From contig OY997589.1 in NCBI GenBank assembly GCA_963921825.1, positions 52,136,546 through 52,200,545 on the forward strand: DNA of 64,000 nucleotides, written 5' to 3'. This DNA is from Erodium maritimum (taxonomy: Eukaryota; Streptophyta; Magnoliopsida; Geraniales; Geraniaceae). Position 1 is the stretch's first letter; every line of letters begins with the position of its first letter. Shown one piece after another: positions 344 to 52,978 of this stretch. The translations under genes and the position numbers were made by a program. The notes beneath the pieces are model-generated. The model searched no databases and was not told the DNA's origin. It worked only from the letters and a program-made list of their open reading frames with translations.

Positions 344-635
344 TCCACGGATAACAGACTGACTATGGCATAATTAGCAGAAAAAGCCAGTAACACTAAA
401 ACCAAACCCAACGCCGGGACTACAGTCCCCAACTCAAGTACTCAACTGACCCACAACCCGTCACCTTCCTCAACAGACTCGACACTCGATAAAAACAGTG
501 TAAACCCAATACAACTATCGACGACCTCCTCAAGGACTCGAACGAAACGACACAACACCAAACAAGATCACAAAGGATCGCACACCAGCTGCTCAGTAAC
601 CAATCTCAATCAGGTCAGGGTTCGACCTATCGCAA

Positions 636-1014
636 TTCCTCGACACGAAGTCGGATCAGGCTGTCGACCTTTCAAACTCGCAATTCCTCGACACTAAGTC
701 GGATCAGGCTGTCGACCTTTAAAACTCGCAATTCATCGACACTAAGTCGGATCAGGCTGTCGACCTTTAGAACTCGCAATTCATCGACACTAAGTCGGAT
801 CAGGCTGTCGACCTTTAAAACTCGCAATTCATCGACACTAAGTCGGATCAGGCTGTCGACCTTTAGAACTCGCAATTCATCGACACTAAGTCGGATCAGG
901 CTGTCGACCTTTAGAACTCGCAATTCATCGACACTAAGTCGGATCAGGCTGTCGACCTTTAGAACTCGCAATTCATCGACACTAAGTCGGATCAGGCTGT
1001 CGACCTTTAGAACT
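636..1014 (-). repeat. 48-bp minisatellite, 8 copies
   Basis: Eight tandem copies of a 48-bp unit with core GTCGGATCAGGCTGTCGAC (cores start at 650, 698 and so on to 986). The copies are nearly identical; the first is the most diverged. The unit is a multiple of three and lacks stop codons on the minus strand, so it gives an open frame of 16-residue repeats (VLKVDSLIRLSV...), probably a by-product. Each unit can fold through CGAC/GTCG around TTAGT. Present in elements 1, 4 (right half) and 5; absent from elements 2 and 3. Confidence 0.93.
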
Positions 1015-1160
1015 CACCACCCCAGGTAACCACAATCGCAATCACAGGCAAGTTCAATCACACAGGCACTCAAGGCCCCTCAAGACACCTCAACAGTCAA
1101 GACTCGGGTTCAACAACCCCACGGGCACTCACTGCCACTCAAGACACCAAATTAAATACA

Positions 1161-1417: not shown

Positions 1418-1435
1418 AAACGCACGACAACCTCC

Positions 1436-9411: not shown

Positions 9412-9412
9412 G

Positions 9413-11208: not shown

Positions 11209-11212
11209 TGGT

Positions 11213-13300: not shown

Positions 13301-13334
13301 CATAACTGCGTATCATAATTACGAGATATGGCAA

Positions 13335-14503: not shown

Positions 14504-16191
14504 TGTTAGTCTTAGTGCCCGTAGTTCAATCCTAAATGTCCAAATGTATATATCATCGTTAGCAATAAAATTAAAGCGGCTTTATATTACTTATGTGTTG
14601 GAGTAATATATCGATGTGTGCTCTGATCTATGCCCACCATGCGAATAGAACCATAGATCGAGATAGATCACACTCGATGGGTCCCTAGTCAACAAAGCTT
14701 CACTAGAAGCGACTAGTATGAAAGATGGCTCTTTATGGCTTACGTTCTGTTAGTCATTGGAATGGGATTTCGGAGTCTGATCATAGATATCATGTGGGAC
14801 ATGATATTGGACGACCCGCCCTGAATATGTGCCATAGATTAAGTCATGAACATATTCAGTGTCGTAGCTTGTCATGTATCCTTAGACCAAGGAGTCTTTG
14901 TGATCGCTATGTAGTCAACAACTGAGTTTGACCTGAGCCTAACGTTGTCCGTAACAGGGCTTCCATAACGGCCAGGATTGGCTTGGGGACGGGCTACATG
15001 AGTGACACGAAAGGCGGCTAAGGGATTTATCCCTCATACTGAGGTATGGGAAAGATATCGGTTCTCGGCCGCTTGATCGAGAGTGACTGGAAGAATAGCA
15101 TGGCCATGCACATGATACTGGGTATCATATCTTCAGTCATCTCACATATCAAGGAACGGTGATTGAGAATAATAAGGATGACGGCTCTATGCCTTATCTC
15201 AATCAGGATATCGGAGATAAAAGGATAATGACAGGGACGACGGAAAGGTTAGAATCGACAGGGTCGATTCGTTATGTAGTGTCAGGCAATACTAAAGTCT
15301 CGTTAGTTGCCACTTAAATAGGATCAAGTAAAATGGGATTTTACGTTGATCTATTGACATGCATAAACCTAAGGGTCACACCGGAGGATGAAACTCATTG
15401 ACACATTTATGGAGAATGGCCAAAAGGGAGTTGTCTCGGGACATGACCAAAACTGGGTTTTGGGTCATGTGCCCGTAAGTGAATAGGACTTTACGGATCG
15501 AGATAAGGCTTGGAGTCTTGGGATTGATCGCGTCGGATAATGTTGGACATTTCCGGTATGGAAGGCATGGAGGCGATGAGCGAATCACGGGACCTCGTTG
15601 GAAATGACCACGGGCCATGTTCCAAGAGGCCCATGAAAGGCCCATGCAACCAAGGCCCATGGAACTAATTAATCAAGTCTTGATTAATTAGTACTAAGTA
15701 AGCAAGACAAGGATTAAGGTGTTGGTGATTCACCACCTAACCCAATCTTGTCTTGCCATACTTTGTCCTATTTACACCTTACTTGACACCATACTTGTCC
15801 CATGCCTTTAGTTGGACAAGTATGGGTTTTGTTATGTTTAAGTCATCTTTTTTCAACATAACAAACACAAGACAAGAATAGGAAACACATTTTCTCTCCC
15901 TCTTCCATGGCCATTTCGGGTTTGGCTAGTTTCCTCCTCCATTTTTGTGTTCTTGAGTCCTCAAAGAGAAGAACTACGTGGCTTTGATTCCCATGTGGAT
16001 ACGTAGGCGTCTTGGAGACTCAAGCCAATCATTCGTTAACCGGTGTTCTTGTTTTGGTAAGAACTAGTGCTGAATTTTTCTCTTGTTAATCCATTCTTTG
16101 TTAGTTGTTTCATGGTTCTAATTGTCTCTTGGTTTTCATTGATTTTCCGCTGCGAGTTGGTTCATCTCCAACCTTACCTCGAGACCCAACA
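14504..16191 (+). repeat. Copia 3' LTR
   Basis: 1688 bp, offset 6780 from the 5' LTR, with one visible difference (G at 14759 against A at 7979). It includes the perfect palindrome at 15664-15692. Followed by the CCTCT target duplicate. Confidence 0.95.
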
Positions 16192-17168: not shown

Positions 17169-17443
17169 TGTCACGCCCCAATTTCAGCGAACCGAACTCG
17201 GGACGCGAACATTTAAAACATGAACACTTAAAACCTGTTTTGAATAAAACTCTGATATTTCCATTTACTTACCAAAAATAATAATAGTATTTACAATACA
17301 AAAACGTCCCAACAAGTGGACAAGGTACACATCCGTCACTAGACTCAACAAAAGTAAAGACCAGACTCCGCTCCAAGCTCCATGGACTTCAAGAGCTAAC
17401 CTAGTCCGTCCGGTGATCAGTACCTGTAGGAAAAGCAGCTAGG

Positions 17444-17461
17444 GGTGAGCGTTCGCTCACC
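17444..17461 (-). promoter_or_regulatory. Invariant LTR hairpin, element 1 5' LTR
   Basis: Same 18-nt hairpin as at 326-343. In this LTR it would lie in the transcribed leader, just before the pyrimidine tract and CAG/GTAC. Confidence 0.75.
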
Positions 17462-17753
17462 TCCACGGATAACAGACTGACTATGGCATAATTAGCAGAA
17501 AAAGCCAGTAACACTAAAACCAAACCCAACGCCGGGACTACAGTCCCCAACTCAAGTACTCAACTGACCCACAACCCGTCACCTTCCTCAACAGACTCGA
17601 CACTCGATAAAAACAGTGTAAACCCAATACAACTATCGACGACCTCCTCAAGGACTCGAACGAAACGACACAACACCAAACAAGATCACAAAGGATCGCA
17701 CACCAGCTGCTCAGTAACCAATCTCAATCAGGTCAGGGTTCGACCTATCGCAA

Positions 17754-18132
17754 TTCCTCGACACGAAGTCGGATCAGGCTGTCGACCTTTCAAACTCGCA
17801 ATTCCTCGACACTAAGTCGGATCAGGCTGTCGACCTTTAAAACTCGCAATTCATCGACACTAAGTCGGATCAGGCTGTCGACCTTTAGAACTCGCAATTC
17901 ATCGACACTAAGTCGGATCAGGCTGTCGACCTTTAAAACTCGCAATTCATCGACACTAAGTCGGATCAGGCTGTCGACCTTTAGAACTCGCAATTCATCG
18001 ACACTAAGTCGGATCAGGCTGTCGACCTTTAGAACTCGCAATTCATCGACACTAAGTCGGATCAGGCTGTCGACCTTTAGAACTCGCAATTCATCGACAC
18101 TAAGTCGGATCAGGCTGTCGACCTTTAGAACT
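17754..18132 (-). repeat. 48-bp minisatellite, 8 copies (5' LTR)
   Basis: Same copy number and order of variants as the array in the 3' LTR, as expected for LTRs made together by reverse transcription. No sign of expansion since insertion. Confidence 0.93.
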
Positions 18133-20328
18133 CACCACCCCAGGTAACCACAATCGCAATCACAGGCAAGTTCAATCACACAGGCACTCAAGGCCCCTCA
18201 AGACACCTCAACAGTCAAGACTCGGGTTCAACAACCCCACGGGCACTCACTGCCACTCAAGACACCAAATTAAATACACGGCTCTCATGGCCACCCCGAC
18301 TCAACAATTAAATACGGGCTCTCAAGGCCACCCAAACTCAACAATTAAATACGGGCTCTCAAGGCCACCCAAACTCAACAATTAAATACAGGCTCTCAAG
18401 GCCACCCAAACTCAACAATTAAATACGGGCTCTCAAGGCCACCCAAACTCAACAATTAAATACGGGCTCTCAAGGCCACCCAAACTCAACAATTAAATAC
18501 AGGCTCTCAAGGCCACCCAACTCAACAATTAAATAAAACGCACGACAACCTCCGGCATACTCGATGCCTCCAACGGTCCTAAAATCACTAGTTTCACAAA
18601 CAACCTCCGGGCATGGTCATATGCCTCCAGTAATTCAATTATCGCTAAGTTCTCTGTTCCTACGACACTACTAAGTGTCACATGCTTTTCTCTTGAACGC
18701 TACAATCCCGTATCATGCTTTTCTAATAATTAAATAAATCTACTCAACCCACGACACACCGGTGTCACATGCAATTCTACTATTAACTTTCCCTAATCAG
18801 GGCCGAGATCCGGCTACTTTTCCCTACCTCGTATATAGATCCAAAAGCGCTCCAACAAAACCCGAAGTGGACCTAGTCACTCGCCGAGCTTTCCCTTGCC
18901 TCGGCCCGTAGCACGATCTAAAAGAACACAAATTCAAAGTACTTTTAAACTAGTACGAATAAACCGAAAATTAATAAACTTAACGCCCAAACGTAACCCC
19001 GACAATGTCGGTCACTCCCAAACTTCCCAATTATTCGATAATGCCGATAAAGGACCCGTAAGGGCCAGATTCACCCGTCATGGCGAATCTGCCCGGTTTT
19101 GGTTAATTGCCTTCCGGGGCTCCAAAAGCCCCCGTTTTCGATTCTACGGTCTTAGAATAATTCAAGGAACCCAACGCACTTGACGGAATTGAATTCCGAC
19201 TTCTAAGTCAATTAATTAACGTTTAAAGTTTCCAAAACCCGTTAATTACAACTTCTCCAATTTAATTCCAAATTTCGATTCGATTAAGGATAAAGTGGTC
19301 CGGGGGACGTTTTAAACCACCCGAACATTAAAACCCGAGCAACCGAGCATATGGGCCCCACCCAAGAGGCTTGGCCGTGCCCTAGGGTTTGAGGGAGGGG
19401 CTCGGCCACCAAGTGGTGGCTGCTGCCACCTCCGGCCAGCCACCACATGGCCGGCCGGCCACCACCCACGGTGGCCGGAGCTCCTCCCGAGCCTCCGGTC
19501 ACCGGAAAACGTGAAATTAAACCCCCAACACTTCTAAAACGTCTCCAACACCTCCCCACACTCTACACAACCCTAAGCCTTAGTTTATAACCAAACCCTA
19601 GCTCTTGAAAATAATCAAAACGAGAATCGGTTCGGGTATTACCGTAGAGGAGAACGAGGGGAACGGGATTGCTCTTTGCTTTGACTCGATCCAAGGGCTC
19701 GATCACAAACCCTAGCTCAACCTCCCTTCTTCTCTCTTCTTCTCCTTCTCCTTCTCTCTCTAAAACCTCTCTTCTAATTTCTAATTTAATTAAAACTAAC
19801 AACTAACTCCCAAAAACTCCCCCCTTTTACCCATGTTCGGCCAACACTTCCCAACCACACCTTTTCCCTCCAAAAATTACACCACCATATAATTGACAAG
19901 TGTCAAGGTGGGTCCCAACCTTTTGGAAAATATCTAGTTGATATTTTCCAATCAGATTCGCGAAAAACGGACGTTTCGGGCCCCGAACGGGCACTTTTCC
20001 CAAAAAAAATTTAAACTGGACGGGCTTCAAGGAAACGGCCCAACTAAGACCGCTACGACGACGGCTAAGCTTTTCGGGTCCAAAACGGTCCTCGAATGGA
20101 CCAAAACGTCGCTCGGGTGACTTTTCCAGCGAAAAATCAATCTTTCCCAAAATGACCAGGAAGTTGCCCTGAGTCCCCCGTAACTCATTTTAGTCGATAA
20201 CGGGGTCAACTTAAGTCCGGCATGACCCTCGGGGTCAATTTAAGTTAAGTTAAGTGTCTGTCTTAAAATTTTTAAATTTTCCTGTTTTTCGCAGGTTTGA
20301 CTGACGTTGACCAGAAGTGGTTATTACA

Positions 20329-20333
20329 CCTCT
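20329..20333. repeat. Target-site duplication of element 1 (right copy)
   Basis: CCTCT right after the LTR terminus TTATTACA; pairs with 46-50. Confidence 0.93.
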
Positions 20334-21974
20334 AGTTGTGTATAGGCATTGATATGCCTATTAAAGTTCCCCACCAACCGTGGAAAAACTCAATTCGAGA
20401 CCATTTGGGCTTAAAACAAAATACCCTCTCATCTAGACATACACCATAATGTTTAAGAAGTCAATAGTAGTAACAAATTGTTCTTTTTGTCCATTAATGG
20501 ACTCATATGGGCTTCTAAGTTGTGTATACAAATAGATATTCGTATTAAAGTACCCCAACTACTGTGGGAACCCAATCCGAGACAATTTGGACTCCAAACA
20601 AGTTTTTTCTCTAATCTAGACATACTATAGTATTTAAGAAATAAATAGGAGTAACAAATTGTTCTTTTTGTCCCTCAAAGAACTCATATGGGCCTCTAGT
20701 TGTTTATACATATAGATATGCCTATTAAAGTACTCCCACAAACCTTGGGAACCCAAATCCGAGACCGTTTGTGATTGAAACAATATAGTCTTTCATCTAG
20801 ACATATTGTAATATGTAAGAAACCAGGAGTAACAAAATGTTCTTTTTGTTCCTCAAGGGACTCCTATGGGCCTCAAGTTGTGTATCAGCATTGATATGCC
20901 TATTAAAGTTCCCCACCAACCGTGTAAAAACTCAATTCGAGACCATTTGGGCTTAAAACAAAATACCCTCTCATCTAGACATACACCATAATGTTTAAGA
21001 AGTCAATAGTAGTAACAAATTGTTCTTTTTGTCCATTAAAGGACTCATATGGGCTTCTAAGTTGTGTATACAAATAGATATTCCTATTAAAGTACCCCAA
21101 CTACTGTGGGAACCCAATCCGAGACAATTTGGACTCCAAACAAGTTTTTCTCTCATCTAGACATACTATAGTATTTAAGAAATAAATAGGAGTAACAAAT
21201 TGTTCTTTTTGTCCCTCAAAGGACTCATATGGGCCTCTAGTTGTTTATACACATAGATATGCCTATTAAAGTACTCCCACAAACCTTGGGAACCCAAATC
21301 CGAGACCGTTTGTGATTGAAACAATATAGTCTTTCATCTAGACATATTGTAATATGTAAGAAACCAGGAGTAACAAAATGTTCTTTTTGTTCCTCAAGGG
21401 ACTCCTATGGGCCTCAAGTTGTGTATAAGCATTGATATGCCTATTAAAGTTCCCCACCAACCGTGTAAAAACTCAATTCGAGACCATTTGGGCTTAAAAC
21501 AAAATACCCTCTCATCTAGACATACACCATAATGTTTAAGAAGTCAATAGTAGTAACAAATTGTTCTTTTTGTCCATTAAAGGACTCATATGGGATTCTA
21601 AGTTGTGTATGCAAATAGATATTCCTATTAAAGTACCCCAACTACTGTGGTAACCCAATCCGAGACAATTTGGACTCTAAACAAGTTTTTCTCTCATCTA
21701 GACATACTATAGTATTTAAGAAATAAATAGGAGTAACAAATTGTTCTTTTTGTCCCTCAAAGGACTCATATGGGCCTCTAGTTGTTTATACACATAGATA
21801 TGCCTATTAAAGTACTCCCACAAACCTTGGGAACCCAAATCCGAGACCGTTTGTGATTGAAACAATATAGTCTTTCATCTAGACATATTGTAATATGTAA
21901 GAAACCAGGAGTAACAAAATGTTCTTTTTGTTCCTCAAGGGACTCCTATGGGCCTCTAGTTGTGTATAGGCATT

Positions 21975-21979
21975 GATAT
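21975..21979. repeat. Target-site duplication of element 2 (left copy)
   Basis: GATAT before TGTCACG; the same bases follow the other LTR at 33439-33443. It lies 17-21 bases into an A monomer. Confidence 0.93.
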
Positions 21980-22250
21980 TGTCACGCACCAATTTCAGCG
22001 AACCGAAACTAGGGACGCGAACGTTCAAAAAGTTACAAAACTTAAACCTGTTTTCGATGAATCACCTAAAAAGTCAGTTTAGTTCCACAAAAGAATAATA
22101 TTTACATCTCAAAATAAAAGTCCCACACTTGGACAAAACGAGATACACGTCTCTAGACTCAAACACCCAGCAACCCGCTTCAGGCTCTTCAAGCTTCAGA
22201 AGCTCACCTAGTCCGGACTACGAACGGTACCTGTAGGAAAAGCAGCTAGG

Positions 22251-22268
22251 GGTGAGCGTTCGCTCACC
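22251..22268 (-). promoter_or_regulatory. Invariant LTR hairpin, element 2 3' LTR
   Basis: The same GGTGAGCG/CGCTCACC arms as in element 1, although surrounding LTR sequence has diverged. In sense it is preceded by TACTAATTATGCC, a good branch-point match. Confidence 0.75.
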
Positions 22269-22555
22269 ACCATAGATAACATACTGACTATGGCATAATT
22301 AGTAGACAAAGCCGAAGACACCAACAACGACTCGAAGACACACGCACGATCAATACTTTCCTCAACCGACTCAACACTCGGACACGTTATGTAGACCCCA
22401 CACTACGATCGACGACCTCCTCCAAGACACGATTGACCACACAATACCAAACAAGATCACAAAGGATCGCAAAGCGGCTGCTCAGTAACCAATCTCTGTC
22501 TCTCGCCCCTTACCGATCATAGACGTGGTCAGGCGGTCGACCTGTCGCGCAACTT

Positions 22556-22704
22556 CCCCCGATCCCAGTCGGGGGGCTAACCCACAACCTCTCCGCTTCA
22601 CCCGATCCCAGTCGGGTGGTTAGCCACACCCGCGCGTCCTTCCCCCGATCCCAGTCGGGGAGCTAGCCCACAACCCCTCCGCTTCTCCCGATCCCAGTCG
22701 GGAG
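22556..22704 (-). repeat. Array of four covarying hairpins
   Basis: Four stems around GATCCCAGTC at 22556-22575, 22599-22618, 22643-22660 and 22685-22704. Counting outward from GA/TC, the fourth added pair is C-G, A-T, C-G and T-A in the four copies, with three constant C-G pairs inside it. The loop TCCCAG is constant. Paired changes argue that the stem, not the sequence, is kept. The order is the same in the other LTR (31043-31191). Confidence 0.8.
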
Positions 22705-24952
22705 GCTAGCTACACCACACAACCTCCACCAGTAACCAGTAACCAATCACAATCACAAACAAGTTCAAACAGACAGTAACGACACCGGTGACAACTCCAC
22801 AGGCACTCAATGCCAACAAAACACCGACAACCAAACACAGGTTCAACGACCCTACGGGCCCTCATGGTCACCCAAGACACCAACGACAAAGTACGGGTTC
22901 ATAACCCCACGGGCACTCACGGCCACTCAAAATACCGAAGCGACAACACGGGCTCTCATGGCCACCCAAGACTCAGCAATAATTAACACGGGCTCTCAAG
23001 GCCACCCAAACTCGACAACAAATAACACGGGCTCTCAAGGCCACCCAAACTCAACAATGAATAAAACGGGCTCTCAAGGCCACCCAAACTCAATCAACAA
23101 TTAACGCACAACAACCTCCGGGCATGGTCATATGCCTCTAGTAACACAGTTAACGCTAAGTTTTCTGCTCCTACGACACTACTAAGTGTCACATGCATTT
23201 CCAGTATTCGCTACATTCCCGCATCATGCATTTCTAACATTCAAATAAACCTATTCGACCCACGACACCCCGGTGTCACATGCAATTCTACTGTTAACTT
23301 TCCCTAGTCAAGGCCGAGATCCGGCTACTTTTCCCTACCTCGAAAGCAACTCCAGAAGCGCTCCACTAAACCCGAGATGAATCGCAGTCACTCGCCGAGC
23401 CTCCCTTTGCCTCGGTCCGCAGCACGATCTAAAAGAACACAGATTTAACTCACTTTAAACTAGTACGAACCGGTCGAAAATAAATAACTCAAAGCCCAAA
23501 ATAATAACGGTTCCGCCGTTAAGTTAACGGCTACGATTTGTCCATTTTAAACTTGACAGTTGTCATTTACACTCGAGCGGGATAAAAGTCGGGTTACGAC
23601 GGATCAGGTTCGAGCACCCGCGCACCGAACCCAGGTTTGATCTAAACCCAGTTTAAACCCCTTTTTAACTTAAAACCGTCGTTGAACTCCCTTGCTTTAA
23701 TTAATTCCGTCTTTGATTTTAAAACAAAACGGTTTCTTCCGTTCGTTTCCAAACTCGATATTTTGGTCCAGAACCCTTATAAAGTCGATTTGATTTCGCT
23801 TACCCCCTTTTCGATTTAACTTAACTCGAGTCTAACCTTAATAAACGACTTTCGTTTTTAAAACCCGTTTAACCTAAGCCGATATAGTTTTATCGATAAT
23901 TAAATTACGTCCAAACGGTACGGATTTAATCTTTAAACTAACACTGATTTCGTTTTACAAACAGTTTGAACCCAACCCATTCGTACTTAAATCTATTCAA
24001 AACATAAGAATAATTATATCGATAACTTATATTTTGTCGATCTTTACAAAATCAGATTTACACGATTACAACAATCCTTTAAACAACCAGATCTACATTT
24101 TTCTATTCCGTTCCCTTCCATTTCGGGAGCTCCGTTCCATCCCGACCAGATTTGAATGAACTCGAGAAAAGGGAAAGCGAAGAAGAAGAACGGTTCTGCT
24201 TGGTCCGGCCGACCACCGGCGCCGGTCGGCCGAGCTTCCACGGGCCGAGAACTAACCGTGAGGAAACGGTGGCGGCGGTGGACGGCGGTGCACGACGGCG
24301 TCGGCGCGGGTCCGGACGACTCGTCCCGTTCCGGATCTGGCGAGCTCGCCGGCGACGGAGCTCGGTTCGTGTCTCGGACGGGCAGATCGTTGACGGGAAG
24401 AGGGCAGCGGCGCGTTAGGGCTCGGACGGGACGGTGGTGGACGGCCTGTTCTTCGGTGGGGACGGGGACGACGGCGTGGGGAGCTCGGTGGCGGACGATG
24501 GCCGGAGCTGGTGAGGAAGACGAAGGAGAAGGATGAGGCAGCGAGCTCGGGGACGGGGTTGTGTGGCTGACCGGAGCGGTGACGGCGTCGGGACGGAGGA
24601 GAAGAGGACGGGACGGTGCACGGCGACGGAGGTGGCGGGCGGAACGATGGTGAACGGCGTCGGTTTCGCCGGAGAAGAAGAGATAGGAGAGAGAGGGAGT
24701 GAGGGTCGTGTAGAGAGAGAGAGGGTAGAGGGCGGCTGTGTTGTGAGGGTGAGTTAGGGTTTCTGAGGTAAGGGTGGGTTATATACCCAGGTCTGACCAG
24801 ATTGGGCCTCAGCTGGGCTGGGCTGGGCCTGCGCGCCTGGCCTGGTCCAGACCTGCTTTCCCTTTTTTTTTTTTTTTGCACTCTTTTCAAAAACTTACCC
24901 TAAGGTTTTCGTTTGCAAATTAATAACCTAACGAAACGGAGTGGGTTTTACA

Positions 24953-24987: not shown

Positions 24988-25560
24988 TAAAACAGCGTAC
25001 CTCGGGAAACGAACAAGGCGGGATACTTCGCGCGAACCTCGTCCTCGCGCTCCCAAGTCTATTCAGCCCCGTGGTGCTTCCACTGCACTCGTACCAAGTG
25101 GATAATCTTGCCTCCCCGCAGAATCTGCTCCCGCGTGTCCATAATCCGAACCGGCTGCTCCTCATAGGAGACATCAACAGCCACCTCGATATCTGTCCAC
25201 TCGATGACGTGGGAGGGGTCTGCATTGCACTGCCGCAACTGAGACTCGTGGAAGACGTCATGATCTCTCCCAAGTTGCGGTGGCAACGCCAGATGATATG
25301 CCAATGTTCCCACTCTGCCCAAAATCTGGAACGGGCCAATGTACCTCGGAGCCAACTTGCCCCCGCTGCGCCTGAACCGCACCAGCCCTTTCCTCGGGCT
25401 CACCTTCAGGAACACGTGATCCCCGACTACAAACTCAAGGGGTCGACGTCGCCTGTCGGCATAACTCTTATGTCAGCTCTGCGCTGTCCTCAGCCGATCG
25501 CGAATCAGTGCGACTTTCTCCGTCGTCTCTCTTACAAGATCTGGCCCCAGCAGACTCTTG
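24987..25560 (-). pseudogene. Element 2 pol 3' end: GPF module and chromodomain
   Basis: Continuation of pol after the 1-bp deletion near 25561-25567. The frame shows [21 protein letters not shown], a TGA at 25473-25475, [19 protein letters not shown], the GPF module and a chromodomain (PVRIMDTREQIL to WKHHGAE), a TAG at 25059-25061 inside the chromodomain, then [16 protein letters not shown] and a natural-looking stop TAA at 24987-24989. That stop shows where the family's polyprotein normally ends. Confidence 0.85.
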
Positions 25561-28500
25561 TCCCCACCTCTGCCCAGCATACTGGTGACCGACACGGCCT
25601 CCCATACAACGCTTCGAAAGGTGCCATCCCGATACTGGTTTGGAAGCTGTTGTTGTAGGCGAACTCGGCCAACGGTAGGTGGGTCTCCCAAGATCCCCTG
25701 AAATCCAGCACACATGCTCGCATCATGTCCTCTAAGATCTGAATGGTACGCTCCGACTGACCGTCTGTCTGAGGATGATGCGCTGTACTGAGTAGCACCT
25801 CGGTCCCCAATGCCTTCTGCAAACTCGGCCAAAACCTGGACGTGAAGCGGGGATCCCTGTCAGACACTATCGACACCGGGACCCCGTGGAGACGCACTAT
25901 CTCCTGAACGTACAAACTGCTCAACTTGTCCACTGGGTCGGTCATCCTCATAGCCAGGAAGTGGGCCGACTTGGTCAACCGGTCGACTACCACCCACACT
26001 GCGTCGTTACCCTTCGGCGCTCTCGGTAGTCCACACACGAAGTCCATCGTAATGTGTTCCCACTTCCATTGAGCAATCGGTAGTGGCTGTAACAACCCCG
26101 CTGGACGCTGATGCTCGGCCTTCACCTGCTGACAGACGAGGCATCTCGACACGAATTCTGCGACTGCTCTCCTCATACCGCGCCACCAGTAGTGCCGTCT
26201 GAGGTCACGATACATCTTGGTGCCCCCCGGATGCACTGTGAGACGCGAATGGTGTGCCTCTCGTAACACGGCGTCTCTACAGTTAACCGGTACGAACAGC
26301 CCCCCGCGGTATCGTAGCCCCCAATCAGTGCTGTCCTGCCAGCCCACTACCTCGTCACCCCTGACGACTCTCTCGCGTATATCTGATGCTTCGACGTCCT
26401 CTGTCTGCGCCTCCAGCACTTGGGCAAGCAGTGAGGGCTGAGCCACTAGTGAGCACATGGCAACACCGCCAGTAACCTCCTCTAGCTCAAGCCCGAATGT
26501 GCTCAGCTCCCCCATCATGCCCCACTCTCGGACAGATATGCTGGCAAGGCTCGGAGTCGACTTCCTACTCAAGGCGTCGGCGACAACGTTCGCCTTGCCT
26601 GGGTGGTAGTGTAGCTCGAAATCGTACTCCTCGAGTAGTTCCATCCACCGTCGCTGACGCATGTTCAGGTCTCGCTGGGAAAATATGTACTTGAGGCTCT
26701 TGTGATACGAGAACACCTGAAACCCCTCGCCGTACAGATAATATCGCCAGCTCTTCAGCGCAAACACGACTGCTGCTAGCTCTAAGTCGTGGGTAGGATA
26801 GTTGCGCTCGTGTATCTTCAACTGCCTGGAGCCATAAGCCACAACTCTGCCCGACTGCATCAGCACGCAGCCCAGTCCCTCTCCGCACGCATCGCAGTAA
26901 ACATCATAACCAATCCCTCGCTCGGGCACCACTAACACTGGAGCTGTAGTCAATCGAGTCTTCAACTCCGCGAACGCACGCTCACAGTCATCTATCCACA
27001 CGAACCCAACACCCTTGCGCGTCAACAGAGTCATCGGTGCGGCTAGTCGTGCAAAATCCTGGACAAATCGCCTATAGTAGCCTGCCAATCCCAGAAAGCT
27101 GCGGATCTCGAAAACACTCGTGGGCCGTGCCCACTTCGAGACCGCGTCGATCTTCGACGGATCGACCAGGATACCGTCACGGGATACGATGTGGCCGAGG
27201 AACCTCACCTCAGAAAGCCAGAACTCGCACTTCTCTCGGTTGGCATATAGCTGATGCTTGCGCAGTAGTGTCAGAACAGCCCTCAGATGTGCCTTATGCA
27301 CCGCCTCGTTCTGTGAATATATCAAGATGTCGTCCACGAAGACCACCACAAACTGATCTAGGTACGGCCGGAATATGCTGTTCATCAGGTCCATGAACGC
27401 TGCTGGCGCGTTCGTCAGCCCGAATGGCATCACCAGGAACTCGTAGTGCCCATAGCGTGTCCGGAATGCAGTCTTTGCGACGTCCCCCTCACGGACTCGC
27501 AACTGATAATAACCGGATCGCAGATCGATCTTCGAGAAGTGAGTCGCCCCTCTCAGCTGGTCGAACAAGTCGTCGATCCTCAGCATCGGGTACCGGTTCT
27601 TCACCGTAACCCGGTTCAGCTTCCGGTAATCTATACACATCCGTAGCTCTCCACTCTTCTTCTTCACGAAGAGTGCTGGTGCTCCCCACGGCGATGCACT
27701 CGGACGGATAAACCCCTTCTGCTGAAGCTCCTTCAGCTGACGCTTCAGCTCAGTCAACTCTGCCGGCGCAAACCTGTAAGGCGCCATCGATATCGCCGAC
27801 GTTCCCGGCACTAGGTCAATCCCGAACTCCACCTCACGAACCGGTGGCAACCCGCTCAACTCCTCAGGGAAGACCTCGGGAAACTCGCATACCACTCTCG
27901 GTAACTCTCGGCTCTGCACAGCCGGTACTTCCTCCTCTGCGGACAACGCCGACAGGAGGACCCCACTCTTACTTCCCAGCACGCACGTCACCTTCGTACC
28001 GCCCACTGTTACTGTCACTCGTCGTCTGTAGCAATCGATGTTGGCTCGGTACCTCGACAGCCAATCCATACCCAAGATCACATCAAAGGTAGTCATCCCC
28101 AACACGAGAAGATCCCCAGGGCAAGGACAGTCTGCGACTCTAATCTCGCAGGCACGACATACTCTAGTCAACGATGCACCACCCCCAACTGGGGTGTCCA
28201 GGCATAGAGGTGGGCTCAACGGCTCTAAGCTCAACCCCAACCTCTCGGCACAACCCGAGGAAATAAAAGAGTGCGACGCCCCGGTATCAAACAAGAATAA
28301 AGCCCATAAGTGATACAAAAAACACGTACCCTGGATGGTCTCGCGGTACGTGCTAGGTCCTGGGGCTCTGGAGTTGGTGACTGCATAGACTCTCCCCTGC
28401 GAGGCCTGCTGCCTCTGACCCGGCGCGCTGGCCGCTGAATACCCGTGACTCTGCTGCTGTCTCGGAATCGGTGCGCTCGTAGAAGGCTGTGACGGTCTGG

Positions 28501-29800
28501 ACTGCTGACCCTGACGAGGACGTCCCCTGGGCGACTGTACGGTCCGCGACTGCTGCGGTCGCTGCGCTGATGTTGCCCTCGACGGCTCACGGCACCATGC
28601 AATGGTGTACCCAACCTGGCCGCATCGAAAACAGCCGATCTCGTTGGCTCTCGACTCTGTGCCCTGGCTGGTCCGGCTGGTCGCTGGCAACGCCGTAGGC
28701 CCTCCTTCCATCGGGCACTCGCGACGGAAGTGGCCTCGCTGCCCGCAAGTAAAGCACGCCGGCGCCCTCTCTTGTGCGACTGGCCCAACTTCTGCCACTG
28801 AACTCCGCTGTCTCGATCCACTCTGATGAGGCGGTGGTCGGAAGGATCCTGCGGTCCTTTGCCTCCGCGAGTCTCGTGAGTCTGACGGCCCTGTCCAAAT
28901 GATCGGCCGAGGTCGGACCTCACGGCCCCTGGCTGCATCCCGGATGCCCTGCTCCACTGTAGCCGCGGTGTCCACTAGATCGGTATACTTCCGTATCCTC
29001 AAGGCGAGAACTTGGTTCCGGATGCCCAGCCTTAGTCCGTCCTGGAACCGCAGGCAACGGTTCGTCTCGTTCGTCACCATCTCAGGCGCGAATCTGGCCA
29101 AGGCTGTGAACCTGGCCTCGTACTGTGCCACTGTCATCTCTCCCTGCTCCAGGTATAAGAACTGCCGATGTCGCTCAAGTCGAGCCGACTCGGGAAAGTA
29201 CTGTGCCATGAATACCTCCTGGAATACGCTGTAGTCGTATCCGACTGTGTCCTTCACCCGCCCCCACCAGTGGTAGGCGCTGTCTCTCAGCTGATGGGCC
29301 GCGAAGGACACTCTCCGACGGCCATCCTCGACACCCAAAGTGTCCAGGTCTCGTGTGACCTGCTCTATCCATCGCTCGCCTAGGTCGGGATTTGGCTCCC
29401 CGACAAAAACAGGTATCCCGAGCTTCAGGAAATCGAGTAGCGCTCGGGAGGTAAGATCCTCTGTCTGAGCGGCCCTCATCGGGACTGCGGCTGCCTCTGG
29501 TGCTGGCGAAGCCGACTCTCGGCTGGCGATGACCGCCACCAAACTCTGAACGGTTCTGGTAAGCTCATCCAGGGCAGTCATCACTGGAGGGTCCGCGACT
29601 GGCGGAACACTGGGGATACCTGCAGATGGCCCCGCATCACTTCTCCCGTCTTCTCCGACGGGAGTGCCCTGTGCCTCCGCGTAGTCGGCGGGCTCGACGG
29701 CTGGCACCCTCCCTGGTGCCCCTGCTGACCGCCCCCGACGGCCTCGCGTGGGTGCCTGACCCCGCGTTCCTGATACTCGTCCGCGCCTTCCGCGAGCCAT
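25532..29800 (-). pseudogene. gag-pol: Element 2 gag-pol polyprotein, frameshifted near its end
   Basis: A frame of more than 1400 codons from ATG 29800-29798 (MARGRRGRV); an in-frame Met 17 codons upstream (29851) is an alternative. Counted from the upstream Met: capsid about 130-300; zinc knuckles [14 protein letters not shown] (366) and [14 protein letters not shown] (407, the His replaced by Tyr); protease [10 protein letters not shown] (about 520); [11 protein letters not shown] (about 838); RNase H, where FSDHKS of element 1 reads FSYHKS (codon 26705-26707), a lost catalytic Asp; then the integrase HHCC site and catalytic core with SDRDPRF and QSERTIQ. A one-base deletion near 25561-25567 shifts the frame just after WAEVG, cutting off the chromodomain. 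Confidence 0.9.
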
Positions 29801-30466
29801 GAACAGTATCCTCTGCACGGATACACGCAAACGTTCAGTTTGCGAACTCAAATAAAGGCGACAAGTTCAAAAACGCTAACGCTCACACGGTCTAAGTTTA
29901 CTCTATCGCGTATGTCACTAAAGCGCCACACCGCTCAAGCTAAACACACCTTATATATAGTATTAGTATACGAGACCACACCGACATATACCACACAAGT
30001 GACGACAAACCAACCAGAGTCGAACCTTGCCCACCGGGCCAACCAAAATCAAACATACGCCCACAGGGCCAATCGAGTTCAAGACATGCCAAAGGGCCAA
30101 CAACCTTAAACCTTTTTCCACTTCATTAAAAATCCTCATTTCTTGGCATCAGGTGGTTACAACCCCGTCCAGGCGTCCCCGAACTACGTTGTGGCCACTT
30201 GATACCAACACCGTCACGCTCGACCACAGGAGCGCTCCTGAGTCGAGTCGCGACAGTTTAAAAACGTTTCACGCAGCAACACACAAACATTGTGCCAGTA
30301 GCCCCGTACTGAACAAGCACAAAACAAAACAGGACTCAAATCCTAACGGGTCTACACCCGAGTTCCGACTTGCGTACCCAACGCAGGACGGGACTCTACC
30401 GACTCGACTCTCCCACCTAATTGACGTGTAGTCCCAGGTGTGAAACCTCGCGCTCTGATACCAAGC
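29801..30466 (-). other. Element 2 untranslated leader
   Basis: About 670 bases between gag and the 5' LTR with primer site at 30452-30463, an imperfect post-primer hairpin (GAGGTTTCACACCT), and three GCCC/GGGCCAA motifs at about 30028-30105, as in element 1. No coding sequence is supported except the in-frame extension upstream of MARG. Confidence 0.65.
30452..30463 (-). promoter_or_regulatory. Primer binding site of element 2
   Basis: In sense TGGTATCAGAGC, three bases from the LTR. Confidence 0.93.
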
Positions 30467-30737
30467 TGTCACGCCCCAATTTCAGCGAACCGAAACTAGG
30501 GACGCGAACGTTCAAAAAGTTACAAAACTGAAACCTGTTTTCGATAAATCACCTAAAAAGTCAGTTTAGTTCCACAAAAGAATAATATTTACATCTCAAA
30601 ATAAAAGTCCCACACTTGGACAAAACGAGATACACGTCTCTAGACTCAAACACCCAGCAACCCGCTTCAGGCTCTTCAAGCTTCAGAAGCTCACCTAGTC
30701 CGGACTACGAACGGTACCTGTAGGAAAAGCAGCTAGG

Positions 30738-30755
30738 GGTGAGCGTTCGCTCACC
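30738..30755 (-). promoter_or_regulatory. Invariant LTR hairpin, element 2 5' LTR
   Basis: Unchanged relative to the 3' LTR copy despite about 50 differences elsewhere. Confidence 0.75.
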
Positions 30756-31042
30756 ACCACAGATAACATACTGACTATGGCATAATTAGTAGACAAAGTC
30801 GAAGACACCAACAACGACTCGAAGACACACGCATGATCAATACTTTCCTCAACCGACTCAACACTCGGACACGTTATGTAGACCCCACACTACGATCGAC
30901 GACCTCCTCCAAGACACGATTGACTACACAATACCAAACAAGATCACAAAGGATCGCAAAGCGGCTGCTCAATAACCAATCTCTGTCTCTCGCCCCTTAC
31001 CGATCATAGACGTGGTCAGGCGGTCGACCTGTCGCGCAACTT

Positions 31043-31191
31043 CCCCCGATCCCAGTCGGGGGGCTAACCCACAACCTCTCCGCTTCACCCGATCCCAGTC
31101 GGGTGGTTAGCCACACCCGCGCGTCCTTCCCCCGATCCCAGTCGGGGAGCTAGCCCACAACCCCTCCGCTTCTCCCGATCCCAGTCGGGAG
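31043..31191 (-). repeat. Array of four covarying hairpins (5' LTR)
   Basis: Same four CCCGA/TCGGG stems, in the same order, as at 22556-22704. I see no differences between the two LTRs inside the stems. Confidence 0.8.
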
Positions 31192-33265
31192 GCTAGCTAC
31201 ACCACACAACCTCCACCAGTAACCAGTAACCAATCACAATCACAAACAAGTTCAAACAGACAGTAACGACACCGGTGACAACTCCACAGGCACTCAAGGA
31301 CAACAAAACACCGACAACCAAACACAGGTTCAACGACCCTACGGGCCCTCATGGTCACCCAAGACACCAACGACAAAGTACGGGTTCATAACCCCACGGG
31401 CACTCACGGCCACTCAAAATACCGAAGCGACAACACGGGCTCTCATGGCCACCCAAGACTCAACAATAAATAACACGGGCTCTCAAGGCCACCCAAACTC
31501 GACAACAAATAACACGGGCTCTCAAGGCCACCCAAACTTAACAATGAATAAAACGGGCTCTCAAGGCCACCCAAACTCAATCAACAATTAACGCACAACA
31601 ACCTCCGGGCATGGTCATATGCCTCCAGTAACACAGTTAACGCTAAGTTTTCTGCTCCTACGACACTACTAAGTGTCACATGCATTTCCAGTATTCGCTA
31701 CATTCCCGCATCATGCATTTCTAACATTCAAATAAACCTATTCGACCCACGACACCCCGGTGTCACATGCAATTCTACTGTTAACTTTCCCTAGTCAGGG
31801 CCGAGATCCGGCTACTTTTCCCTACCTCGAAAGCAACTCCAGAAGCACTCCACTAAACCCGAGATGAATCGCAGTCACTCGCCGAGCCTCCCTTTGCCTC
31901 GGTCCGCAGCACGATCTAAAAGAACAGAGATTTAACTCACTTTAAACTAGTACGAACTGGTCGAAAATAAATAACTCAAAGCCCAAAATAATAACGGTTC
32001 CGCCGTTAAGTTAACGGCTACGATTTGTCCATTTTAAACTTGACAGTTGTCGTTTACACTCGAGCGGGGTAAAAGTCGGGTTACGACGTATCGGGTTCGA
32101 GCACCCGCGCACCGAACCCAGGTTTGATCTAAACCCAGTTTAAACCCCTTTTTAACTTAAAACCGTCGTTGAACTCCCTTGCTTTAATTAATTCCGTCTT
32201 TGATTTTAAAACAAAACGGTTTCTTCCGTTCGTTTCCAAACTCGATATTTTGGTCCAGAACCCTTATAAAGTCGATTTGATTTCGCTTCCCCCCTTTTTG
32301 ATTTAACTTAACTCGAGTCTAACCTTAATAAACGACTTTCGTTTTTAAAACCCGTTTAACCTAAGCCGATATAGTTTTATCGATAATTAAATTACGTCCA
32401 AACGGTACGGATTTAATCTTTAAACTAACACTGATTTCGTTTTACAAACAGTTTGAACCCAACCCATTCGTACTTCAATCTATTCAAAACATAAGAATAA
32501 TTATATCGATAACTTATATTTTGTCGATCTTTACAAAATCAGATTTACACGATTACAACAATCCTTTAAACAACCAGATCTACGTTTTTCTATTCCGTTC
32601 CCTTCCATTTCGGGAGCTCCGTTCCATCCCGACCAGATTTGAACGAACTCGAGAAAAGGGAAAGCGAAGAAGAAGAACGGTTCTGCTTGGTCCGGCCGAC
32701 CACCAGCGCCGGTCGGCCGAGCTTCCACGGGCCGAGAACTAACCGTGAGGAAACGGTGGCGGCGGTGGACGGCGGTGCACGGCGACGTCGGCGCGGGTCC
32801 GGACGACTCGTCCCGTTCCAGATCTGGCGAGCTCGCCGGCGACGGAGCTCGGTTCGTGTCTCGGACGGGCAGATCGTTGACGAGAAGATGGCGGCGGCGC
32901 GTTAGGGCTCGGGCGGGACGGTGGTGGACGGCCTGTTCTTCGGCGGGGACGGGGACGACGGCGTGGGGAGCTCGGTGGCGGACGGTGGCCGGAGCTGGTG
33001 AGGAAGACGAAGGAGAAGGATGAGGCAGCGAGCTCGGGAACGGGGTTGGGTTACTGACCGGAGCGGTGACGGCGTCGGGACGGAGGAGAAGAGGACGGGA
33101 CGGTGCACGGCGACGGAGGTGGCGGCCGGAACGATGGTGAACGACGTCGGTTTCGCCGGAGAAGAAGAGAGAGGAGATAGAGGGAGTGAGGGTCGGGTAG
33201 AGAGAGAGAGGGTAGAGGGCGGCTGTGTTGTGAGGGTGAGTTAGGGTTTCTGAGGTAAGGGTGGG

Positions 33266-33272
33266 TTATATA
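33266..33272 (-). promoter_or_regulatory. TATA box of the element 2 5' LTR
   Basis: TATATAA in sense, about 170 bp into the LTR, followed by a CT/GA-rich stretch. If used, U3 is short and more than 2.7 kb of LTR would be transcribed as leader. Confidence 0.55.
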
Positions 33273-33438
33273 CCCAGGTCTGTCCAGATTGGGCCTCAGC
33301 TGGGCTGGGCTGGGCCTGCGCGCCTGGCCTGGTCCAGACCTGCTTTCCCTTTTTTTTTTTTTTGCTCTCGTTTCAAAAACTTACCCTAAGGTTTTCGTTT
33401 GCAAATTAATACCCTAACGAAACAGATCAGGTTTTACA

Positions 33439-34831: not shown

Positions 34832-35437
34832 CTACCGAGTTAGAGTCTCGAGGGGTTGCAAGTTTTCTTTAGCTGGCTTACGAGTTAGAGTCTCGGTAAG
34901 TTGCAAGCGTGTTTTATGGTTGGTGTCTTGGGAGGCCGTGAGTGCCTGTGGGGTTGTTGAGTCCGTGTCTTACTGTCGGTGTGTCTTGGGAGGCCGTGAG
35001 TGCCTGTGGGGCTGTTGAGTCCGAGTTTTACGGTTAGTGTCTTGGTGGCCATGAGTGCCTATGAGTGTTGATCCTGTGTTGTTACTGGTTGTGAACTTGC
35101 TTGTGATTGTGATTGTGTTTGTGATTGCGTTTGTGGTTACCGGAGGTTGGGGGCCCGCTTCCTGAAACGGGGGTCCACGAGCACACGCGTCTGCATGTTC
35201 AGACGGGGTAGGGGGCCCGCCCGCCAATAAAGGGGTCCTGGCCGCGCGTGTGTGGTTTGGGTTTGTGAGCGTACCTTGGCTGGCTTATGGGTTAGAGTCC
35301 CAGTAAGTTGCAGCATTTTCCGGCTGGCTTATGGGTTAGAGTCCCATTAAGTTGCAGCATTTTCCGGCTGGCTTATGGGTTAGAGTCCCGGTAAGTTGCA
35401 GCATTCTTGGGTTGGCCTGACCGGGTTAGAGTCCCGG
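34832..35437 (+). repeat. Hairpins with constant TTAGAGT loop and covarying stems
   Basis: Six copies: 34832-34850, 34877-34900, 35284-35307, 35328-35351, 35372-35395 and 35421-35437. The loop TTAGAGT is constant; the closing stems are GAG/CTC in two copies and GGG/CCC in four. The next pair is C-G, T-A or T-G. Copies with the full stem add CTTA/TAAG across a one-base bulge. The 3' LTR repeats the array at 40788-41393. Confidence 0.78.
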
Positions 35438-45995: not shown

Positions 45996-48300
45996 TGTCA
46001 CGCCCCAATTTCAGTAAACCGAACTTAGGACGCGAACTTTTAAAACAATAAATCATTTGAAACCTGGTTTGAATCGATACTTTAAAAATTACCAATTTGT
46101 CATCAAAAGAATGATATTTTCAATACAAAAGCGTCCCAACAAGTGGACATGGTACAATATCCGTCACTAGACTCAACAAATATAAAGACCAGACTCCGCT
46201 CCGAGCTCCACCAGCTTCAGGAGCTCACCTAGTCCAGCCTACGAACGGTACCTGTAGGAAAAGCAGCTAGGGGTGAGCGTTCGCTCACCACCGCGGATAA
46301 CAGACTGACTACGGCATAATTAGCAAACAAAGCCTATAACACCCACCACAGACTCAACTCCGGGGATCACCGTCCCCAACTCAAGTACTCCGACTGACAA
46401 ACACCCACGATGACCTTCCTCGAACGACTCGACGCTCAACCACGTAAGTAGACCCGACACAACAATTGACGACCTCTCCCAAGGACTCAAACGACAGCTA
46501 CACAACACCAAACAGATCACAAAGGATCGCACACCAAACAAGATCCCAAAGGATCGCATACCAGCTGCTCAGTAACCTCTCCCACTCACACGAACACGGA
46601 TCAGGCTAGCCAAAGAATGCTTACATCCTGTGATACTCAAACTCGGACCAGGCCAGCCAAAGAGTGCTTGCAACCTGTGTTACTCAAACCATGTCAGGCC
46701 AGCCAAAGAGTGCTTGTAACCCGTTGATACTCAAATTTGGTCAGGCCAGCCAAAGAGTGTTTGCAACCTACCAGGATCCGCAATCACAATCACAATCACA
46801 ATTACAAGCAAATTCAAACACACAGGCACTCAAGGCCACTCAAGACACCTCAACAGCCAAGACTCGGGTTCAACAACCCCAAGGGCACTCACTGCCGCTC
46901 AAGACACACCAACGATCAAGACTCGGGTTCAACAACCCCGCGGACACTCACTACCACTCAAGACACACCAACGGTCAAGACTCGGGTTCAACAACCCTAC
47001 GGCACTCACGGCCACCCAAAACACCGACAATAAGACACGGGCACTCAAGGCCACCCAAACTCAACAGAAATTAACGCACAACAACCTCCGGCATAAAACG
47101 ATGCCTCCAACAGTCCTAAGATCACTAGTTTCACCACCAACCTCCGGGCATGGTCATATGCCTCCAGTAGAACAATTATCGCTAAGTTCTCCGATCCTAC
47201 GACACTACTAAGTGTCACCTGCTTTTCCAATAATTACTAAGTTCCCGTAACATGCTTTTCGGATAAACGCTACCATCCCGTATCATGCATTTCTAAATAT
47301 TCGATAGTCTACTCAACCCATGACACCCCGGTGTCACATGCAATCCTACTGTTAACTTTCCCTAGTCAGGGCCGAGATCCGGCTACTTTTCCCTACCTCA
47401 ACCGAAGAGCACCCCCTACGCTTCCTAGCTGCTGACGTTCTGGCTCGCTACCTCCGGGCTTCACTTCGATCGAAGCCGGACGCTAAAGATAACACGAAAG
47501 TCATAATTAGAGGCGAAACCCAGGTTAAATCAAAGGTCAAGATTAAACCAGTTTAAAACCGACAGTTGTCCTTTAAACTCGAGCGGGATAAAAGCGGGGT
47601 CACGGCGAATCGGGTTTGAGTACCCGAGCACCGAAACCGGTGCATGCGAGGCACGGTTCCAATGCACGAAACCCGAGGTCCGGTTCAGCGTTCCGTTGTT
47701 AAACCCATCCTAAGTATGTTTCAACAGTTTGGTTATTCGTTCCACGCTCAACCGTTTCAAGGTCCATTTTAGATCAAATATGATTGTTCTTTTTAATTCC
47801 TTTTTAAAACCAACGTCGTGTTAGTTCGTTTTCCTAACGAATTTGTTTCTCAAAATTCCTCGACTCAAAACCGTTATTTTAACCCCACGATTGATTTTAA
47901 ACTCAAACTGATTTCTTTTCCAATTTCTTTTAAAGCTGTTTTTCAGTTTCAATTGATCTGTTTCCAACCAGTTCAGATCCAACCATTTTACGTCCGAAAA
48001 ACACACAACGAATTCTTTTATTCCAAATATCGTTTTATTACTTTCACTGAAATTACGATACAACAAGTCGTTTCAAAACGAAAACACAATTCCAGCAGAA
48101 ACCAAATAAAAGGGACGACGGTACAGAAAATGAACCGGCCGCCGGCGACTAAACCCCCAGGCACGAACCTCACGTGGAGGGAAGGACGGCTGGGCGGTGC
48201 ACGGCGGTGCACGGCGGAGCACCTTGCCCGTCCCAGATCTGGACGGAGACGAACAGGCTGTCCCGGATCTGAGTTCGCGCCGGCGAAACTGCCACGGCTC
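45996..48300 (-). mobile_element. Element 4, left half: partial gypsy LTR in minus orientation
   Basis: Starts at the LTR terminus TGTCACGCCCC and follows the LTR order in reverse: conserved block, a repeat with GCCAGCCAAAGAGTGCTTG (about 46600-46775, four copies), CAAGGCCAC repeats, GGCAT hairpins, then the segment with CTTCGATCGAAG shared with element 3. Similarity to the element 3 LTR fades at about 48200-48300, so the promoter-end portion is missing. No internal region or second LTR in this orientation follows. Confidence 0.83.
46272..46289 (-). promoter_or_regulatory. Invariant LTR hairpin, element 4 left half
   Basis: The 18-nt hairpin is intact within this old, truncated LTR. Confidence 0.75.
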
Positions 48301-52560: not shown

Positions 52561-52630
52561 AGGTGTTTTGAGTGGCCTTGAGTGACTGTGTGATTGAACT
52601 TGCCTGTGATTGTGATTGTGGTTACTTGAA

Positions 52631-52978
52631 GTTGTGAGTTCTAAAGGTCGACAGCCTGATCCGACTTAGTGTCGATGAATTGCGAGTTCTAAAGGTCGAC
52701 AGCCTGATCCGACTTAGTGTCGATGAATTGCGAGTTCTAAAGGTCGACAGCCTGATCCGACTTAGTGTCGATGAATTGCGAGTTCTAAAGGTCGACAGCC
52801 TGATCCGACTTAGTGTCGATGAATTGCGAGTTCTAAAGGTCGACAGCCTGATCCGACTTAGTGTCGATGAATTGCGAGTTCTAAAGGTCGACAGCCTGAT
52901 CCGACTTAGTGTCGATGAATTGCGAGTTCTAAAGGTCGACAGCCTGATCCGACTTCGTGTCGAGGAATTGCGATAGGT
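52631..52978 (+). repeat. 48-bp minisatellite, 7 copies
   Basis: Same unit as in element 1, here in plus orientation, with sense core GTCGACAGCCTGATCCGAC repeated every 48 bp. The last copy carries the CTTCGTGTCGAGG variant that also marks the end unit in elements 1 and 5. Confidence 0.93.

What the first reader, a model, noticed from the sequence alone, without database searches (positions are those of the whole stretch)
22556..22704. Tandem LTR hairpins whose stems covary between copies (element 2)
Four adjacent hairpins share the loop TCCCAG and three C-G pairs, but the next pair is C-G, A-T, C-G and T-A in successive copies. A repeat array decaying neutrally would break stems; paired changes within one array suggest selection on structure in RNA, or on cruciforms in DNA. 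The array is repeated unchanged at 31043-31191.
Basis: seen in the sequence. Interest (0 to 1): 0.75.

Follow-up and report, generated by a model that had tools for sequence, protein, structure and literature searches.

The report
Hairpin repeat array in retrotransposon LTR
A family of plant jumping genes carries, in its long terminal repeats, a fast-changing row of short hairpin units whose paired bases sometimes change together; the pattern is real and leans weakly towards RNA pairing, but stems break often and one copy shows that a simple copying error can also make a matching stem.

Summary
Observation confirmed: four hairpins (22556-22575, 22599-22618, 22642-22661, 22685-22704) share five inner pairs and differ at the sixth (C-G, A-T, C-G, T-A). 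The copy at 31043-31191 is the other LTR of the same Ty3/gypsy element, so not independent. In the element's sense (minus strand) the one broken pair is a U.G wobble.

The host genome (763 Mb) was searchable. In the unit that is C-G here, genome-wide counts are T-A 929, T.G 148, C-G 77, C.A 1: a two-step change through a wobble. Across 308 distinct units, doubles are few (4) and breaks many (59). Changes shared between copies keep sense-strand pairing more often than private ones (31:22 against 18:37, p 0.012; antisense reversed). But this depends on alignment register, and partners slid by a base or two score about as well on keep:break.

One copy (L183) has its 3' arm replaced by the exact reverse complement of its 5' arm, the footprint of a template switch. 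Best reading: a hypervariable LTR hairpin array, perhaps under weak sense-RNA constraint, with mutational self-copying a near-equal rival.

The parts
22556..22575 (-). hairpin 1 (sense unit d4): 7-bp stem, pair 6 C-G; loop TCCCAG on + / CTGGGA in sense
   Evidence: genome-wide states T-A 929, T.G 148, C-G 77, C.A 1
22599..22618 (-). hairpin 2 (sense unit d3): pair 6 A-T
   Evidence: A-T in 76 of 76 rows
22642..22661 (-). hairpin 3 (sense unit d2): pair 6 C-G; pair 7 is T.G wobble in sense, C.A mismatch on +
   Evidence: both states in 76 of 76 rows
22685..22704 (-). hairpin 4 (sense unit d1): pair 6 T-A
   Evidence: T-A in 74 of 76 rows, C.A in 2 (one LTR pair)
31043..31191 (-). identical array in the 5' LTR of the same element
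21980..24952 (-). 3' LTR of element 2
   Evidence: (98.15% to the other LTR)
30467..33438 (-). 5' LTR of element 2; followed in sense by TTGGTATCAGAGC, a primer-site-like word
25532..29866 (-). gag-pol reading frame of element 2 (gag, zinc knuckle, protease, RT, RNase H, integrase; the frame ends soon after the integrase core)
   Evidence: integrase core match is below its curated cut-off
22227..22268 (-). 42-nt motif downstream of the array in sense; holds the perfect 8-bp hairpin GGTGAGCG-AA-CGCTCACC; invariant in the five aligned LTRs E1-E5
   Evidence: alignment; 10,029 exact copies genome-wide
35278..35435 (+). array of element 3 at the corresponding place (class B units, loop TTAGAGT)
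630..1015 (-). array of element 1 at the corresponding place (48-nt units, CGAC-TTAGT-GTCG)
46593..46769 (-). array of element 4 at the corresponding place (47-nt units, TTTGAGT loop, inner stem broken)
52627..52973 (+). array of element 5 at the corresponding place (48-nt units)

Best explanation
The array is the hypervariable, tandem-repeated part of the LTR of a high-copy plant Ty3/gypsy retrotransposon. Each ~43-48-nt unit carries a hairpin. Units are duplicated, lost and replaced between subfamilies. Among element lineages that go on transposing, the hairpin is weakly kept in the sense-strand RNA: changes that leave a standard pair or a G.U wobble are passed on more often than changes that break it, so over time pairs shift (T-A to T.G to C-G). 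Shown: the array, its place ~570-960 nt from the LTR end in E1-E6, the pair states and intermediates, and a strand-dependent contrast between shared and private changes. Inferred: that the array is transcribed, that selection causes the contrast, and what the hairpins do. My guess is a structured leader or 3' end bound by Gag/nucleocapsid, or one that slows or protects the RNA; this is untested.
For: Genome-wide states of pair 6 in unit d4: T-A 929, T.G 148, C-G 77, C.A 1. Unit d1: T.G 15 places against C.A 5, the 5 being 4 insertions if two places 8.4 kb apart are LTR mates. Hand-made register: class A shared branches keep 22 / break 15 (null 15.3 / 16.3; 54 of 500 nulls keep as many), changes to G.U 16 (null 9.6; 12 of 500); class B shared keep 9 / break 7 (null 7.3 / 13.0; 8 of 500 nulls break as few). 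Shared against private: G.U-type to C.A-type 20:11 against 12:23, p 0.026; keep:break 31:22 against 18:37, p 0.012; for antisense pairing 18:35 against 30:22, p 0.019. A second tree gives nearly the same pooled contrasts. Outside the stems private changes show no G-to-A over C-to-T bias (45:45). Stem differences between presumed LTR mates: 5 in 23 pairs, all breaking, none to wobble, none double. Core double G-C to A-T in L179/L189, with a G.T state in another subfamily, L176.
Against: Slid-partner controls on shared branches: class B real 9:7 keep:break, slid by -1 9:4 and by +3 6:4; class A real 20:21, slid by -2 11:7 (similar; not rerun for the register). Only the doubles tend to be fewer in slid versions (0 or 1 each). 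Part of the shared/private contrast comes from an excess of breaks on private class A branches (21 against null 10.1, 3 of 500). The class A keep:break ratio is within the null (75 of 500; 194 of 500 with a second tree). A cruder register gives p 0.13 and 0.075. Stems are not more conserved than surroundings among young copies (1.29% against 0.99% loop, 0.90% spacer), nor significantly among shared changes (89:310 against 77:209, p 0.18). The sense array folds only slightly better than shuffles, the antisense more clearly. Events on one tree are not independent. None of 21 TTTGAGT units has the inner stem. No transcript data. The G.T count for unit d3 did not complete (A.C 2).
Confidence: 0.38

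Rival explanations
1. Mutation, not selection: inverted repeats in the array copy one arm from the other by template switching (during DNA replication or reverse transcription), and unit duplication and exchange spread the result. Paired changes then need no function.
For: L183: one class B unit reads GGCTGGCTTACGAG-TTAGAGT-CTCGTAAGCCAGCC. The 3' arm is the exact reverse complement of the 5' arm, where a sister unit in the same array reads CTCGGTAAGTTGCAAGC. L183 is the only one of 199 stretches with a perfect inverted repeat of arms 9 or more (loops 3-12). The mechanism is published for RNA genes (PMC8794818: abstract and opening text, one Results section and the Discussion read). Arrays differ in unit number and kind between subfamilies.
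Against: Template switching does not by itself favour T.G over C.A, nor differ between shared and private changes. The d4 change T.G to C-G is the opposite of what that paper's intrastrand model predicts (T.G to T-A). No double change in 23 presumed LTR pairs, though that sample is small.
Confidence: 0.35
2. Near-neutral drift: the shared hairpin is inherited sequence similarity, and the four pair states are a few independent substitutions that happen to match, picked out by eye.
For: Doubles on shared branches barely exceed the null: class A 2 against 0.4 (38 of 500), class B 1 against 0.1 (59 of 500). Outer pairs 5-7 are standard in only 128, 105 and 93 of 222 class A units. Slid partners give similar keep:break ratios.
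Against: Array-level chance 0.23%; the strand-dependent contrast.
Confidence: 0.16
3. DNA-level dyad: repeated binding sites for a dimeric factor acting as an LTR enhancer, or TFIIIC B-box-like sites in the TTCGAGT units.
For: CCGAC (either strand) is denser in the array than in the rest of the LTR (E1 8 in 390 nt against 4 in 2771; E2 4 in 190 against 10 in 2783; E5 7 in 360 against 5 in 3242). Core pairs 1-4 of class A are standard in 213, 213, 214 and 182 of 222 units. GTTCGAGTC fits the recalled B-box consensus in some class B units.
Against: The recalled CRT/DRE consensus RCCGAC is met by only 15 of 470 unit copies. Outer pairs change base while keeping pairing in E2, which a fixed half-site would not need. 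The strand dependence is unexplained. ARAGORN finds no tRNA and Rfam no family in the window.
Confidence: 0.11

Closest known systems
Hypervariable tandem-repeat regions of plant LTR retrotransposons (3' UTR of Ogre/Tat elements; Macas et al. 2009, seen only as cited in PMC7004042)
   Same: tandem units that vary in sequence and monomer length in a non-coding part of a plant LTR element (PMC7004042, passages)
   Different: here the array lies inside the LTR, and each unit holds a hairpin
Template-switch mutations that create and maintain RNA hairpins (PMC8794818)
   Same: L183 shows the expected one-step perfect stem
   Different: described there for RNA genes; here in an LTR array, with a lineage change that runs through G.U
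Plant chromoviruses, Tekay clade (PMC3605345, passages)
   Same: Ty3/gypsy domain order, Met-type primer site just after the 5' LTR, purine tract before the 3' LTR
   Different: LTRs of ~3 kb with arrays; chromodomain not detected by Pfam
Tandem enhancer repeats of LTRs such as Tnt1 BI/BII (recalled, not read)
   Same: repeated motif in an LTR
   Different: no expression evidence here

Membership tests
Ty3/gypsy LTR retrotransposon | gag-PR-RT-RH-IN order between direct LTRs | tested here: met
   (gag 188-279, protease 489-620, RT 734-894, RNase H 988-1081, integrase zinc-binding 1192-1250; integrase core 1270-1365 at E 4.8e-05, below its curated cut-off, in the frame 25532-29866)
Ty3/gypsy LTR retrotransposon | tRNA primer site after the 5' LTR and purine tract before the 3' LTR | tested here: met
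   (TTGGTATCAGAGC; TTTAGGGGGG); the tRNA match is recalled
Tekay-clade chromovirus | chromodomain at the integrase C-terminus | tested here: inconclusive
   no Pfam chromodomain at E 0.001; the follow-up with a C-terminal piece failed on stop codons and was not repeated
Hypervariable tandem-repeat region of plant LTR elements | tandem units that vary in sequence and length between subfamilies | tested here: met
Hypervariable tandem-repeat region of plant LTR elements | location in the 3' UTR of Tat-lineage elements | tested here: not met
   the arrays of E1-E6 lie inside the LTR
Structured RNA element under selection | excess of compensatory change over a phylogenetic null | tested here: inconclusive
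Structured RNA element under selection | structure formed in the RNA | not testable with these tools
   no transcript or probing data
Template-switch mutation | arm replaced by exact reverse complement of the other arm | tested here: met
   L183 only, of 199 stretches; not shown for the window's own array
Cassandra (5S in LTR) or retrozyme (hammerhead in LTR) | 5S rRNA or hammerhead match in the LTR | tested here: not met
   Rfam gathering search of the window: 0 matches

The most novel reading that the evidence does not exclude
A high-copy plant Ty3/gypsy superfamily carries in its LTRs an evolving cassette of RNA hairpins in which the stem matters more than its sequence: units are swapped and rewritten, partly by self-templated arm copying, while sense-strand pairing is filtered at each round of transposition. 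That would be a cis-acting RNA structure found by comparing transmitted changes with post-insertion changes between LTR mates.
Probability: 0.27. Interest if true: 0.65.

Novelty: new variant of a known kind. Interest (0 to 1): 0.4.

Why it matters
Cis-acting RNA structures of plant LTR retrotransposons are, as far as I recall, little known. A family with about 10,000 LTR copies, whose mates give a built-in neutral control, allows a clean test of selection on RNA pairing against mutation by template switching, a question argued so far on RNA genes such as rRNA. The L183 unit is a concrete example of the second process.

Tried and rejected
Independence of the 31043 copy: rejected, it is the LTR mate. 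A tRNA or a known Rfam family in the window: none. CRT/DRE site array: the consensus is rarely met. Exact matches to the conserved motif in prokaryote genomes (26 bases) or viral contigs (20 bases): none. Identifying the host from gag relatives: 28 relatives, best 59% identity over 66% of the query; the only named one is Acorus gramineus, 39% over 46%; the species stays unknown. First automatic registers of class A misplaced some units. A second rule dropped 25 of 222 units, 8 of them the CACGTCTATG group. The template-based register kept all 222 and is the one I rely on; its templates are family-typical cores that I chose by eye, so it may lean towards pairing. A TATA box or start site could not be fixed. 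The outer trinucleotides printed are off by one in many rows and were not used. Quadruplexes in plant LTRs (PMC3902901, passages) were not pursued.

Full report
What is there. The window lies at G000:C2:52136546-52200545 in a 763-Mb genome; the elements and gag relatives say plant. It is a block of 178-bp satellite broken by related Ty3/gypsy elements. Self-comparison and LTR ends give E1 (minus; LTRs 51-3210 and 17169-20328), E2 (minus; 21980-24952 and 30467-33438), E3 (plus; truncated 5' LTR 34730-36027, 3' LTR ending at 41983), E4 (minus, from 45996), E5 (plus, ending at 53555) and E6 (minus, from 63059). All six end ...GCGTGACA. A Met-type primer site (match recalled) follows the 5' LTRs of E1-E3.

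The array. In E2 the finding's array is four 43-nt units. On the sense strand each has a 7-bp stem around CTGGGA; pair 6 is T-A, C-G, A-T, C-G from d1 to d4, and pair 7 of d2 is T.G. The other elements of the window have an array at the corresponding place, within ~570-960 nt of the LTR end, with units of 44, 47 or 48 nt and other stems.

More copies. A flank pattern that does not touch the hairpins finds 729 copies within 2 mismatches. I fetched 60 of the 100 listed, presumed LTR pairs first, and added 11 of 20 earlier loci that hold this flank (the other 9 lack it), both LTRs of E2 and 3 neighbours: 76 rows. Pair 6 of d4 is T-A 57, T.G 14, C-G 4, one gapped, C.A 0; in d2 and d3 pair 6 does not vary, in d1 2 of 76 do. 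Divergence is 1.29% in stems, 0.99% in loops and 0.90% in spacers, so young stems are not protected. Genome-wide exact counts in a 30-nt context give T-A 929, T.G 148, C-G 77, C.A 1. The association is extreme, but copies share ancestry, so it stands for a few events, most simply A to G and then T to C. For d1 the single-step states are T.G 15 and C.A 5; for d3 A.C is 2 and G.T did not complete.

Other subfamilies. A 42-nt motif downstream of the array is identical in E1-E5 and has 10,029 exact copies. From the first 100 listed I took 80 upstream stretches: 60, one per obvious LTR pair and skipping loci already held, then 14 further places and 6 meant as mates, of which at least one (L194) is of another family. 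With the window, 200 kb of neighbourhood and the earlier loci this made 199 stretches, not all with an array (L191 is coding). Units found by sequence profile: 222 distinct class A units (754 copies; core CCGA/TCGG) and 86 distinct class B units (107 copies; GGCTGGCCTGA, then loop TTAGAGT, TTCGAGT, TTTGAGT and others). LTR mates are among them.

Covariation test. I counted parsimony events on unit trees against a null in which each branch keeps its number of substitutions but their columns are redrawn by column rate. Shared means an inner branch or a unit seen in two or more stretches; private means a unit seen once. With the template-based register, class A shared branches have 22 pair-keeping and 15 pair-breaking events (null 15.3 and 16.3) and two doubles (null 0.4; 38 of 500). 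Class B has 9 and 7 (null 7.3 and 13.0) and one double (59 of 500). Private branches have 12 and 21 (A, null 9.6 and 10.1) and 6 and 16 (B, null 8.1 and 13.2), with one double in B. So there is no large excess of compensation; there is a deficit of breaks in class B and a tendency to keep in class A. Pooled shared against private: keep:break 31:22 against 18:37 (p 0.012), G.U-type to C.A-type 20:11 against 12:23 (p 0.026); for antisense pairing the contrast reverses, 18:35 against 30:22 (p 0.019).

Register and controls. Other registers give G.U to C.A 20:10 against 10:25 and keep:break 29:28 against 15:40 (sums of classes, no test run), and 17:10 against 14:19 (p 0.13) and 26:23 against 19:36 (p 0.075). 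Partners slid by -3, -2, -1, +1, +2, +3 columns give keep:break on shared branches, for class A (real 20:21), of 4:4, 11:7, 12:15, 10:18, 8:15, 8:20, and for class B (real 9:7), of 6:8, 8:7, 9:4, 6:5, 5:5, 6:4. The real pairing has the most kept changes in class A but not a better ratio than every slid version, and is not distinct in class B. Doubles are 0-1 in each slid version. Between 23 presumed LTR pairs of the E2 subfamily, 5 stem differences are all breaking. I read all this as suggestive of constraint on sense RNA, not as proof.

Mechanism by mutation. L183 holds a unit whose 3' arm is the exact reverse complement of its 5' arm, a 14-bp perfect stem, beside normal sister units. This is what a template switch in a hairpin leaves (PMC8794818). 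It shows that this kind of array can gain matching arms without selection. It does not explain the strand dependence.

Literature. The paper searches (open-access library only) turned up hypervariable tandem repeats in plant elements, but no listed title or abstract opening described covarying hairpin arrays in LTRs, asking for all six terms, found none. This does not show that none is in print.

Verdict. Real feature, partly supported interpretation, moderate interest. The decisive test is the same contrast on all ~10,000 LTR copies.

Noticed in passing
window 22227-22268 (-), 30714-30755 (-), 302-343 (-), 35731-35772 (+), 41687-41728 (+), 53262-53303 (+) and others: 42-nt motif GGTGAGCGAACGCTCACCCCTAGCTGCTTTTCCTACAGGTAC, identical in the aligned LTRs E1-E5 and present 10,029 times exactly in the genome. 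It holds a perfect 8-bp hairpin and then a pyrimidine-rich stretch ending in CAG|G that looks like a 3' splice site, with CTAAT upstream. It may matter more than the array.
   Followed up: partly
L183 (G000:C1:27597367-27597847): Class B unit turned into a perfect 14-bp inverted repeat, as if one arm had been copied from the other; footprint of a template switch.
   Followed up: partly
L179, L189, L176: Within one array units CCGAC..GTCGG and CCAAC..GTTGG occur together (core G-C to A-T); L176, of another subfamily, has the wobble state CCGAC..GTTGG.
   Followed up: partly
L137, L173, L185 and similar: Class B units with CCGAG-TTCGAGT-CTCGG resemble a tRNA T-arm / Pol III B-box in tandem (resemblance recalled; ARAGORN found no tRNA in the window).
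   Followed up: no
window 7723-16191: A Ty1/copia-like element (gag-pre-integrase and integrase domains) with 99.94% identical LTRs is nested in element 1.
   Followed up: no
window 20329-21979, 33438-34728, 41984-45995, 53557-63058: 178-bp satellite with repeat spacing mostly near 540 bp (three monomers) between near-identical copies; the LTR elements lie directly against it.
   Followed up: no
window 34737-34831, 52287-52584 and similar: Further tandem arrays upstream in the LTR (39-nt and 58-nt units); the 58-nt units hold a GGGTT-GTTG-AACCC hairpin in E1, E4 and E5 that is degraded in E3.
   Followed up: no
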